From positions 1 to 33,717 of the forward strand of contig VFLK01000006.1 of assembly GCA_009885085.1 (NCBI GenBank): 33,717 nucleotides of DNA, given 5' to 3'. Below the pieces are notes generated by a model, which was not told the DNA's origin, ran no database searches, and saw nothing but the letters and a program-made list of their open reading frames with translations. This DNA is from Minisyncoccota bacterium. Its GTDB lineage: Bacteria; Patescibacteriota; Microgenomatia; UBA1400; PJMF01. Shown here one piece after another: positions 3,948 to 30,758 of the stretch. Position numbers and translations under genes: made by a program. Numbering within the stretch: the first letter of the stretch is position 1; the number at the start of each line of letters is the position of its first letter.

Positions 3948-5798
3948 ATGCAAGATGTTAAACTTTCAGACCTGAAATGGGCTATCTATTGTAGAAAGAG
4001 TAGCGATAGCGAGGATAAACAAATTGAATCATTGCCCGCTCAAGAAAAAGAATTAAGAGAAGCGGCTAAGCGAAGTGGTATAAAAAACATTGTTAAACTT
4101 TTCAAAGAATCACATTCAGCATTTCATCCCGGAAGACCAGACTACAATGAAATGATTAGAATGGTTTACAGTGGTGAAATAAATGCTATCTTGGTTTGGG
4201 CTGGTAATAGAATTGCACGAAACCCTGTTGATGCTGGTGCCTGCATTTATGCTATGGATCAAGGCAAGTTGCTGGTGGTCAAAACTATAGGAGGCACATA
4301 CTTCAATACACCAGATAACAAGTTTGCTCTAAGTATTGACTTTACTGTATCTAAGAAATCATCTGATGATAAAAGTGTCGCAGTTCATAGAGGCAACAAA
4401 CATAAGTTTTTTGAAAATAAAGAATGGGGAGGTCCTGCAAAACAAGGCTTTATTAATTATATCGATCCACTTACAAAAAAACGAGATATTAAGATTGATG
4501 AAGAGAGATTTGATTTATTGCATCAAGCTGGAAAGCAGATTGCTAATGGTAAGTTCACACCTCTAGAAGCTCTCGATTGGCTAAATAAAGATATGGGATA
4601 TAGAACACTGCCTCAAAGAAAACAGGGTGGTGGTCCCTTAGCAGAGACAACATTTTATAATTTTCTTTCAGATACATTCTATTATGGAGTAATGCGACAC
4701 AAGGTTGATGGAATCTTTCAAGAAGGTGATCATAAGTATAGAAAAATGTTTACTAAAGAGGAGTGGGACACTATTCAGATCAGATTGGGTAAAAAGAGCC
4801 GGTCCATACAAAAGAAACACGATTTTCCATTCAAGGGTGTAATGAGCTGTGGAGAATGCGGTGGTTTTATTACTGCAGAGAAAAAAGTTCAGATTATTTG
4901 CTCCGGATGTAAGACTAAGTTTACCAAAACAGCCAAAAGGGCAGAATGTATTAAGTGTGGTCTGAGAATCGATCTTATGGATGATCCCACAATACTAAAT
5001 TACACCTATTATCATTGCACTAAAAAAGTGAACAAAAACTGTGCTCAAGGATGGTTGGAAATTAATGAGTTAGAAAAACAAGTGGATCAAGAGCTTCAGA
5101 GATTTGAGATAGATCCCGATTTTAAGGATTGGGCTATTAAACATCTGGGAGAACTGAATGAAAATGAGGTCCAACAAGATAAAAAGTTGACAAAACGCAA
5201 CATTGATAACTACGAAAGCCTAAAATCAAGGCTTAGAAGAATGACTAAGCATCGTTTTACAGATGCCTACGAGGAATCTAGTCTAGAGGAAAAAGAAATC
5301 TATGAAGACGAGTTAAAGACACTTAAAGATCAAATAGAAACTGTAAAAAATAATATCGAGATAGTGGACCAGAAACAGTATGATTGGATCGACTTGTCAA
5401 AGAAAACCTTTGATTTTGCTTGTTATGCTCGTTATTGGTTTCGTAATGGAGATGTTAAGACTAAAACACAGATACTCGAGATGCTTGGGTCGAACCTAAA
5501 GCTACACAACAAAGAAGTCTTGGTAAATGGGGATAGTTTATGGTGGATCATTGAAAAAGCAAAGAAAGAAGCAAAAGAATTGGGAGTTTGGTTAGAACCT
5601 ACGAAAAAAGCGGGTCCAGTAGACTTTAATGCCTATTTAGATCCCGCCATTCCCACATTGTTGCGGGACTGGGAGTCGAACCCAGCCTGTGAGATTATGA
5701 GCCTCACGTGCACCGTACACTATCCCGCGCGTTATTGTTTGCATTTTTCCATTCAAGGTTCTCTGCAATCCAGAGTAAACATTATAGTTACTTTCTAG
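3948..5798 (+). CDS. large serine recombinase (resolvase N-terminal, recombinase and zinc-ribbon domains)
   Basis: AIYCRKSSDSEDKQIESLPAQEKEL, RIARNPVDAG, CGECGGFITAEKK; C-terminal ~45 aa are translated across the antisense tRNA. Confidence 0.92.
   Translation: MQDVKLSDLKWAIYCRKSSDSEDKQIESLPAQEKELREAAKRSGIKNIVKLFKESHSAFHPGRPDYNEMIRMVYSGEINAILVWAGNRIARNPVDAGACIYAMDQGKLLVVKTIGGTYFNTPDNKFALSIDFTVSKKSSDDKSVAVHRGNKHKFFENKEWGGPAKQGFINYIDPLTKKRDIKIDEERFDLLHQAGKQIANGKFTPLEALDWLNKDMGYRTLPQRKQGGGPLAETTFYNFLSDTFYYGVMRHKVDGIFQEGDHKYRKMFTKEEWDTIQIRLGKKSRSIQKKHDFPFKGVMSCGECGGFITAEKKVQIICSGCKTKFTKTAKRAECIKCGLRIDLMDDPTILNYTYYHCTKKVNKNCAQGWLEINELEKQVDQELQRFEIDPDFKDWAIKHLGELNENEVQQDKKLTKRNIDNYESLKSRLRRMTKHRFTDAYEESSLEEKEIYEDELKTLKDQIETVKNNIEIVDQKQYDWIDLSKKTFDFACYARYWFRNGDVKTKTQILEMLGSNLKLHNKEVLVNGDSLWWIIEKAKKEAKELGVWLEPTKKAGPVDFNAYLDPAIPTLLRDWESNPACEIMSLTCTVHYPARYCLHFSIQGSLQSRVNIIVTF
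5661..5729 (-). tRNA. tRNA-Met (CAT), initiator type by C1:A72 mismatch
   Basis: rc CGCGGGATAGTGTACGGTGCACGTGAGGCTCATAATCTCACAGGCTGGGTTCGACTCCCAGTCCCGCAA folds as a cloverleaf; loop CTCATAA; TTCGACT T-loop. Confidence 0.85.
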
Positions 5799-5809
5799 AT
5801 AAAAGTCAA
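5781..5809 (-). promoter_or_regulatory. sigma70-type promoter for minus-strand tRNA
   Basis: minus strand TTGACT-N17-TATAAT. Confidence 0.7.
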
Positions 5810-5814
5810 AGTTC

Positions 5815-5823
5815 TGCTATAAT
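5815..5823 (+). promoter_or_regulatory. extended -10 promoter for plus-strand tRNA
   Basis: TGCTATAAT 21 nt upstream of tRNA start. Confidence 0.6.
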
Positions 5824-5844
5824 TACCTCCGTAATAAGACACTT

Positions 5845-5918
5845 GCCAGGGTAGCTCAGTTGGTTAGAGCATGGGATTCATAAACCCAAGGTCGTGAGTT
5901 CGAATCTCACTCCTGGTA
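5845..5918 (+). tRNA. tRNA with CAT anticodon (elongator Met or Ile2)
   Basis: GCCAGGGTAGCTCAGTTGGTTAGAGCATGGGATTCATAAACCCAAGGTCGTGAGTTCGAATCTCACTCCTGGTA cloverleaf. Confidence 0.92.
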
Positions 5919-5951
5919 CATTTTAAACCAATTTTTTTATCTGGAGATCTG

Positions 5952-9906: not shown

Positions 9907-9980
9907 TTTTGTTAAATACATGTGACACTCGCTCGATAAGCAAAGCTTATAGGCGAGCTTACACAAGTATTCAACAAAAT
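9906..9980. repeat. 75-nt intergenic imperfect palindrome
   Basis: ATTTTGTTAAATAC/GTATTCAACAAAAT, TGTG/CACA, CTCGC/GCGAG, ATAAGC-AAA-GCTTAT. Confidence 0.75.
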
Positions 9981-10002
9981 CACATATATAACAAAGGAGA
10001 AA

Positions 10003-13337: not shown

Positions 13338-13408
13338 TTTAAATAAATATTATAAAAGCTCTCGCAGGAACAAGTCCTGAATGTTCGCTTTTCTAATATT
13401 TATTTAAA
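13338..13408 (+). repeat. 39-nt structured motif, copy A, with long AT-rich outer stem
   Basis: core AAAAGC-TCTCG-CAGGA-ACAAG-TCCTG-AATGTTC-GCTTTT at 13354-13392. Confidence 0.85.
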
Positions 13409-14652: not shown

Positions 14653-14779
14653 AGCTGACTGCTGCAACTTAATAAATATTTGCGAAATGAGCCTCAGCGA
14701 AATTCTAATTTTGCAGTAAATAATGAGCATAAGCTCATGGAGTAAATATTTATTAAGTTGCAGAGCGTTAGTAATGCTT
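14651..14779. repeat. large multi-branched intergenic palindrome
   Basis: 20-bp perfect arms CTGCAACTTAATAAATATTT (14662-14681)/AAATATTTATTAAGTTGCAG (14744-14763), outer AAAGC/GCTTT, two internal hairpins. Confidence 0.8.
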
Positions 14780-19709: not shown

Positions 19710-19808
19710 GAAGTCGTAGAACTTGTATAAGCAAGCCTAATGAAGCAAAGATTTGCAATGGTTTTTAAATCTGCGCAATCGAGATTGCGTTACAAGTTCT
19801 ACGACTTC
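19710..19808. repeat. 99-nt intergenic palindrome with internal hairpins upstream of dnaJ
   Basis: 18-bp perfect arms GAAGTCGTAGAACTTGTA/TACAAGTTCTACGACTTC; internal CGCAATC-GA-GATTGCG. Confidence 0.8.
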
Positions 19809-21122: not shown

Positions 21123-21190
21123 TTAAATAAATATTAAAAAAGCGAACATTCAGGACTTGTTCCTGCGAGAGCTTTTATAATATTTATTTA
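21123..21190 (-). repeat. 39-nt structured motif, copy B (inverted relative to copy A)
   Basis: core 21138-21176 is the reverse complement of the copy A core; 13-bp outer stem. Confidence 0.85.
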
Positions 21191-29966: not shown

Positions 29967-30551
29967 GTGTTGCAAATAATTTTAGACGTAGAAACCAAGA
30001 AAACTTTTGATGAAGTTGGTGGCTTTTTCCCAGATAGATTGGGTATTTCATTTGTTGGAGTTTGCGTCAGAGAAGGATTATCTGGTAAAGGTGAAATGAA
30101 AAGCTATTGGGAAAAAGATTTACCATTACTTTTTCCACTTTTAGAAAAAGCAGACGTAGTTATTGGATTTAATGTAGATAACTTTGATATGCAGACTTTC
30201 GTTCCATATTACAGTGCTGATATTACTAAAATTCCTACTCTGGATGTTTTGACTCGTATCAAGGAAAGCGCTGGTCACAGAATTGGTCTTGATGCTGTTG
30301 CGCAAGAAACTCTTGGGATTGGAAAATCTGGAGATGGTTTGGATGCCATAAAATATTTCAACACTCAGCAGTGGGACAAACTTGAAAAATATTGTTTACA
30401 AGATGTGGAAGTAACTAGAGATGTCTATGATTATGGTTTGCAAAAAGGACATGTAAAATTTAAAAATAAATGGAACAGGTTGGTGGAGTGTCCAGTTGAT
30501 TTTAGTTTTACTCCACAAAGAGATGCCGGGTTGCAGATGAGTTTAATTTAA
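29967..30551 (+). CDS. RNase H-like/YprB-type 3'-5' exonuclease
   Basis: ILDVETKKTFDEVGG, VIGFNVDNFDMQ, LEKYCLQDVEVTRDVYDYG exonuclease-like motifs. Confidence 0.7.
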   Translation: MLQIILDVETKKTFDEVGGFFPDRLGISFVGVCVREGLSGKGEMKSYWEKDLPLLFPLLEKADVVIGFNVDNFDMQTFVPYYSADITKIPTLDVLTRIKESAGHRIGLDAVAQETLGIGKSGDGLDAIKYFNTQQWDKLEKYCLQDVEVTRDVYDYGLQKGHVKFKNKWNRLVECPVDFSFTPQRDAGLQMSLI

Positions 30552-30570
30552 TATTTAAATTTAGTATTTA

Positions 30571-30609
30571 AAAAGCTCTCGTCGAAACAAGTTCGAAATA
30601 TTCGCTTTT
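30571..30609 (+). repeat. 39-nt structured motif, copy C
   Basis: AAAAGC-TCTCG-TCGAA-ACAAG-TTCGA-AATATTC-GCTTTT. Confidence 0.85.
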
Positions 30610-30621
30610 ATTTAATTTAGC

Positions 30622-30660
30622 AAAAGCTCTCGTTGGGACAAGCCCAAAATGTTCGCTTTT
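30622..30660 (+). repeat. 39-nt structured motif, copy D (tandem with C)
   Basis: AAAAGC-TCTCG-TTGGG-ACAAG-CCCAA-AATGTTC-GCTTTT. Confidence 0.85.
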
Positions 30661-30758
30661 GTTAAATTAATCAAATTAAAATAATGAACTCGCTGGGCGT
30701 TTTCTTAAGCAAAAATTAAGTTAAACAATTAAATGCATGTTGCCTATATAATGAACGT

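What the first reader, a model, noticed from the sequence alone, without database searches (positions are those of the whole stretch)
30571..30660. Covarying 39-nt RNA/DNA motif family with invariant loops (tandem copies C and D; four copies in window)
All four copies are exactly 39 nt: AAAAGC-UCUCG-N5-ACAAG-N5'-AAURUUC-GCUUUU. The apical 5-bp stem is CAGGA/UCCUG (A, B), UCGAA/UUCGA (C), UUGGG/CCCAA (D): fully different sequences, fully compensated. The ACAAG loop and the asymmetric internal loop UCUCG/AAURUUC are invariant except one transition. Copy D also has a compensated outer stem (TTAATTTAG-C / G-TTAAATTAA). This is strong evidence for selection on structure plus conserved unpaired bases. 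I do not recognise it as a known family.
Basis: seen in the sequence. Interest (0 to 1): 0.85.

Follow-up and report, generated by a model that had tools for sequence, protein, structure and literature searches.

The report
Palindromic hairpin repeats of one Pacebacteria genus
The motif is a real family of about a dozen scattered hairpin-forming DNA repeats per genome, found in only one genus of ultra-small bacteria; it behaves like inserted repetitive DNA whose matching arms seem to be copied from the insertion site, rather than like a regulatory RNA kept in shape base by base.

Summary
In detail: four exact 39-nt copies in the window, none expected by chance, no Rfam match. The feature is larger than described. 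The 39-nt core (variable 5-bp apical stem, fixed loop and internal loop) sits in 18-33-nt inverted arms that differ from site to site. Three species of one Ca. Pacebacteria genus hold about 12-15 copies each. A covariance model found none in a fourth species of the genus, nor in 381 other genomes of the class.

Copies are insertions. Clean empty sites exist; one copy is an in-frame 17-aa insertion in a membrane-protein gene; cores occur in both orientations, and at two sites are inverted between species while the arms are kept. One arm is native flank (at two genes it contains the stop codon), the other its inverted copy. Where arms are retained between species, changes are one-sided (14 to 0 compensated). 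So arm 'covariation' reflects how each hairpin was made or replaced, not base-by-base selection on an RNA.

Best reading: a palindromic interspersed repeat, RPE/REP-like in behaviour but a member of neither tested family, shaped by replication template switching. Y1 transposase and reverse transcriptase are absent from two of the three carriers; how cores spread is unknown.

The parts
30571..30609 (+). Copy C: core AAAAGC-TCTCG-TCGAA-ACAAG-TTCGA-AATATTC-GCTTTT; arms disturbed because it is in tandem with D
30609..30673 (+). Copy D: core 30622-30660 (TTGGG/CCCAA) with about 16 nt of arm on each side
13338..13408 (+). Copy A: core 13354-13392 (CAGGA/TCCTG) with 22-nt arms; a clean 71-nt insertion relative to the sister species (G003)
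21124..21190 (-). Copy B: core 21138-21176 (CAGGA/TCCTG) with 20-nt arms, about 30 bp before the nusA start codon, antisense to nusA; present in G001, absent in G003
30541..30570 (+). Left outer arm of the C/D pair; it overlaps the last codons and stop (AGT TTA ATT TAA) of the 194-aa ORF 29967-30551. The orthologous G003 hairpin has an inverted copy of TTAATTTAA in its right arm

Best explanation
The motif is the core of a short non-coding palindromic interspersed repeat (core 39 nt, whole hairpin about 65-95 nt) that inserts mainly between genes, and in one case in frame inside a gene. Shown: genus restriction, multiple copies, empty sites, both core orientations, core inversion with arms kept, one arm native and the other its inverted copy, no in-place compensation in retained arms. 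Inferred: a copy of the core enters a site through a DNA fold-back or template-switch event. The end of the core (GCTTTT) pairs back onto AAAAGC, synthesis continues by copying the adjacent native flank as an inverted arm, and the strand returns to its template at a short microhomology (TAAA at site A, TCAA at site e). Later template switches between the arms can invert the core. The fixed loop and internal loop are kept because the folded single strand is the form that is recognised or propagated; by what is unknown. There is no evidence that individual copies do anything for the cell.
For: Copies (R1, E<=0.05, both-strand calls on one hairpin counted once): about 12-15 per genome in G000, G001 and G003, none in same-genus G002 or other family members; none in the other 381 class genomes at E<=1e-4. 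Clean insertions: site A 71 nt in G000 vs G003; site e 80 nt in G003 vs G000. In-frame 17-aa insertion in a ~580-aa membrane-protein gene of three species, absent from G002, G004, G009, G049. Native arm plus inverted copy: site A TTTAAATAAA, site e ATCAAATAT, site i TTTATTTTACAAAA; G003 C7 arm TTAATTTAA is the conserved coding end TTA ATT TAA; G001 mraZ arm begins with the TTAG of its stop, 26-bp perfect. Retained arms: 14 one-sided vs 0 compensated. Core inversion with similar arms at C51 vs C70/C69 and C20 vs C65, and in a related hairpin type at site g. Spacer inversion and arm homogenisation by template switching are documented (PMC8604942, PMC8794818).
Against: About nine positions are occupied in two or all three species although neighbouring intergenic DNA hardly aligns, and different core types occupy one site; this could mean selection for a hairpin there, or an insertion hot spot. 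On the transcribed strand G-U mismatches outnumber A-C 13 to 5 (orthologues not independent), a weak sign of RNA-level constraint. In G000 C51 the apical stem changed on both sides (TCGAA/TTCGA to TCAAA/TTTGA, intermediate in G003), and a different hairpin family (window 14662) shows one compensated arm pair between G000 and G003. Site i is filled in G000 and G001 but empty in G003, so a deletion leaving one arm can mimic the native-arm pattern there. The arm consensus TTTAAATAAATATTT shows that the inner arm belongs to the element or reflects target choice. No mobilising enzyme was identified.
Confidence: 0.62

Rival explanations
1. A functional RNA element (processing, stability or termination hairpin) kept by selection at operon junctions; the loops bind a protein.
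For: Sites conserved between species near stop and start codons; strong covariation between copies; G-U over A-C 13:5 on the transcribed strand.
Against: Core in both orientations to the genes and inverted between orthologues; one copy inside a coding gene; no compensated changes in retained arms; no terminator-like sites at the window copies; absent from same-genus G002 and from orthologous junctions in sister species.
Confidence: 0.17
2. A non-autonomous transposon end or REP-like unit moved by a single-strand (HUH/Y1) transposase that recognises the folded core.
For: Fixed unpaired bases with free stems is how folded single-strand substrates are recognised (established for IS200/IS605 and REP/RAYT); copies occur as tandem or inverted doublets.
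Against: No Y1_Tnp in G000 (99.8% complete) or G003; the examined G001 Y1 locus carries no such hairpin; no GTAG end tag. A lost or unrecognised enzyme remains possible.
Confidence: 0.13
3. A DNA-level protein-binding or chromosome-organising site, such as a cruciform bound by a nucleoid or recombination protein.
For: Orientation-independent, low copy number, conserved loops.
Against: No positional regularity was established; absent from G002; core types are swapped and arms decay.
Confidence: 0.08

Closest known systems
Rickettsia palindromic elements (RPE)
   Same: Palindromic repeats present between genes and in frame inside genes, absent from relatives, losing arm identity with time (as summarised in PMC6649704)
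   Different: Different sequence and organism; conserved loop and internal loop with freely varying stems; arms differ by site; core inversions. R. conorii RPE is reported to end in CGTC (PMC3733652)
REP sequences (GTAG and CGTC families)
   Same: Short palindromic repeats with alternative complementary stem residues, singletons and doublets, some inside genes (PMC3733652)
   Different: No GTAG end tag, no Y1/RAYT transposase in two carriers, asymmetric internal loop, locus-specific arms, about 12-15 copies per genome
Template-switch mutations at inverted repeats
   Same: Create and homogenise hairpin arms and invert the spacer (PMC8604942, PMC8794818)
   Different: Described as local mutations; here they act around a repeated core at many unlinked sites
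Double-hairpin / repetitive hairpin elements of mitochondria
   Same: Scattered hairpin-forming repeats in AT-rich DNA (titles and abstracts, e.g. PMC2800124, PMC5910586; papers not read in full)
   Different: Other structure; bacterial host; no sequence comparison made

Membership tests
Rfam families (4227 models) | score at or above gathering threshold | tested here: not met
   only two tRNAs at gathering; nothing at the copies at E<=1
REP (GTAG) / REPtron | GTAG tetranucleotide at one end | tested here: not met
   the junction is AAAAGC/GCTTTT followed by variable arms; no GTAG in the core
REP (GTAG) / REPtron | RAYT (Y1) transposase in the genome | tested here: not met
   PF01797 absent from G000 and G003; two hits in G001, and the examined one has no such hairpin nearby
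RPE / CGTC repeats | insertion inside genes in frame | tested here: met
   one site, three species
RPE / CGTC repeats | CGTC tag at one end | tested here: not met
   CGTC appears only inside TCGAA-type cores, not in CAGGA or TTGGG cores, and not at an end
Intrinsic terminator | GC-rich stem followed by a U-run | tested here: not met
   0 terminator-like sites at copies A, B, C/D; the tool only allows loops of 3-8 nt next to the counted stem
Retroelement-made repeat | reverse transcriptase in carrier genomes | tested here: not met
   PF00078 absent from G000 and G003, three hits in G001
Template-switch-shaped inverted repeat | arm copied from the opposite flank and core (spacer) inversion | tested here: met
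   direction of change inferred from few species

The most novel reading that the evidence does not exclude
A transposase-free structural repeat: a 39-nt core that is copied between sites as a folded single strand and builds its own long inverted arms by fold-back copying of whatever flanks the target, with core types exchangeable and invertible inside existing arms.
Probability: 0.22. Interest if true: 0.75.

Novelty: new variant of a known kind. Interest (0 to 1): 0.5.

Why it matters
It warns that textbook covariation between repeat copies can come from DNA-level inverted copying rather than selection on RNA, a trap for RNA-motif discovery. It also gives a natural, multi-species system (low copy number, clean empty sites, core inversions) for studying how palindromic repeats arise and spread in genomes where two of three carriers lack Y1 transposase and reverse transcriptase, and where no SbcD was detected.

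Tried and rejected
Rfam, gathering and relaxed: nothing at the copies. Y1 transposase as mobiliser: absent from G000 and G003. Reverse transcriptase: absent from G000 and G003. Loss of SbcD as the discriminating cause: absent also from copy-free G002 and most relatives, so at most permissive. Phage origin: no exact core in viral contigs. Terminator. The G060 hit was not confirmed by R1 in that genome, and the G049 hit (E=0.003) was weak; neither was followed. Literature searches for a known Pacebacteria hairpin repeat found none, within an open-access library only.

Full report
Observation. They have no Rfam match.

Extent. Each copy is the tip of a longer hairpin: outward from AAAAGC/GCTTTT there is often a mismatch, then an AT-rich arm. 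Best-scoring arm length from the core pair is 18-33 nt for most copies. On 21 copies 23 of 24 pairs change on both sides; the covariation score is 0.521 against 0.174 in shuffles and at most 0.133 when the partner is slid. A covariance model R1 gives 14, 17 and 14 hits at E<=0.05 in G000, G001 and G003; several are the same hairpin read on the other strand, so about 12-15 distinct copies each. None was found in G002 of the same genus, in the other family members tested, or in the other 381 genomes of a 384-genome class sample at E<=1e-4. Filters in large searches can lose weak matches. The exact pattern over 85,488 species returned two contigs, a Patescibacteria MAG (JAHIVL010000068) and Ca. 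Pacebacteria CG_4_10_14_3_um_filter_34_15 (PFJN01000040); contig lengths and positions correspond to G001 C15 and G003 C53. Viral contigs: none.

Core types. Besides CAGGA, TCGAA and TTGGG with loop ACAAG there are CAGGC/CAGAC with loop AGTTC, and degenerate forms.

Position. Nearly all lie in short gaps between co-directional genes, many within tens of bases of a stop or start codon, with the core in either orientation. Many positions are shared between species: nusA; the 194-aa exonuclease-like gene (copies C/D); the MNNPED gene; the membrane-protein gene; the SufB/SufD-like pair; miaA; mraZ; the gene pair at G000 C20; the dnaB-like gene; G003 C11/G001 C8 (in the last the two insertions are tens of bases apart). 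Gene names here are by eye from the translated sequence and were not tested with profiles. Core type often differs between species at one site.

Insertions. Copy A is a clean 71-nt insertion in G000 relative to G003; G003 C55 (site e) is a clean 80-nt insertion relative to G000. By nucleotide identity in several genes G000 and G003 are closest and G001 is further; A and e also lack the hairpin in G001, which favours gain. One copy is inside a ~580-aa membrane-protein gene in all three species as an in-frame 17-aa insertion missing from G002, G004, G009 and G049.

Arms. At A the native left flank TTTAAATAAA (present in the empty G003 site) reappears inverted in the right arm; at e the native right flank ATCAAATAT reappears inverted on the left; site i likewise. 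In G003 the hairpin after the exonuclease-like gene has a perfect 22-nt arm whose outer nine bases are that gene's last codons, TTA ATT TAA; in G001 the mraZ hairpin has a perfect 26-bp arm that starts with TTAG of the stop. Comparing orthologous hairpins, arms are either retained, with one-sided changes only (14 one-sided, 0 compensated, 3 non-complementary double changes over six pairs), or different wholesale with blocks of compensated differences. That is the signature of arms made as a pair, not of gradual compensation. It does not exclude selection on the core. An arm consensus near the core shows that part of the arm is element-derived or reflects target choice.

Inversions. The core is inverted between species with similar arms at C51 versus C70/C69 and at C20 versus C65. 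A related hairpin type at site g is inverted between G000 and G003. Core inversion and arm homogenisation are known products of polymerase template switching (PMC8604942, PMC8794818).

Enzymes. Y1 transposase and reverse transcriptase are absent from G000 and G003. SbcD, whose complex cuts hairpins (established knowledge), was not detected in any of the four genus genomes or most relatives, which may permit palindromes but does not explain their distribution.

Wider setting. Other long-armed hairpins with different cores occur in the same genomes: 14 in 402 kb of sampled stretches of the three carriers (some of them copies of this motif), against 1 in 200 kb of G002, 2 in 110 kb of G006 and 0 in 72 kb of G050; locally shuffled sequence gave 0 (small numbers, and samples from carriers were chosen partly around copies).

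Verdict. A real, genus-restricted palindromic repeat, behaving like RPE/REP elements but belonging to neither tested family. The covariation in the arms is best explained by DNA-level inverted copying; for the core, recognition of a folded strand remains likely and untested.

Noticed in passing
window 14662-14763: Another long hairpin (20-bp perfect arms, 62-nt loop GCGAAATGAGCCTCAGCGAAATTC...) between two genes; orthologous hairpin in G003 (L075 2688-2783) with one compensated T:A to C:G arm change.
   Followed up: partly
window 19710-19808: Hairpin with 18-bp perfect arms just after dnaK; its loop contains AAATCTGCGCAATCGAG, shared with hairpins elsewhere in G001 and G003.
   Followed up: partly
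window 9907-10002: Long imperfect hairpin in the trpS gap where G003 has two copies of the motif (C14).
   Followed up: partly
G000 L133 and G003 L147 (site g): Related hairpin (TAGGC-AGTTC-GCCTA, arms TTTTGTGA) whose core is inverted between the two species.
   Followed up: partly
G000 L099 3974-4044; G001 L101 3959-4038: Motif-like hairpin with loop ACAAG but a different internal loop (TCACA/AGCGCTC), beside the MNNPED gene.
   Followed up: no
window 3948-5919: Large serine-recombinase-like ORF whose end overlaps an antisense tRNA-Met (5660-5729), with a second tRNA-Met at 5845-5919; looks like an integrated element's edge.
   Followed up: no
G002 L172 6067-6139: A single long-armed hairpin of another type in the copy-free congener.
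   Followed up: no
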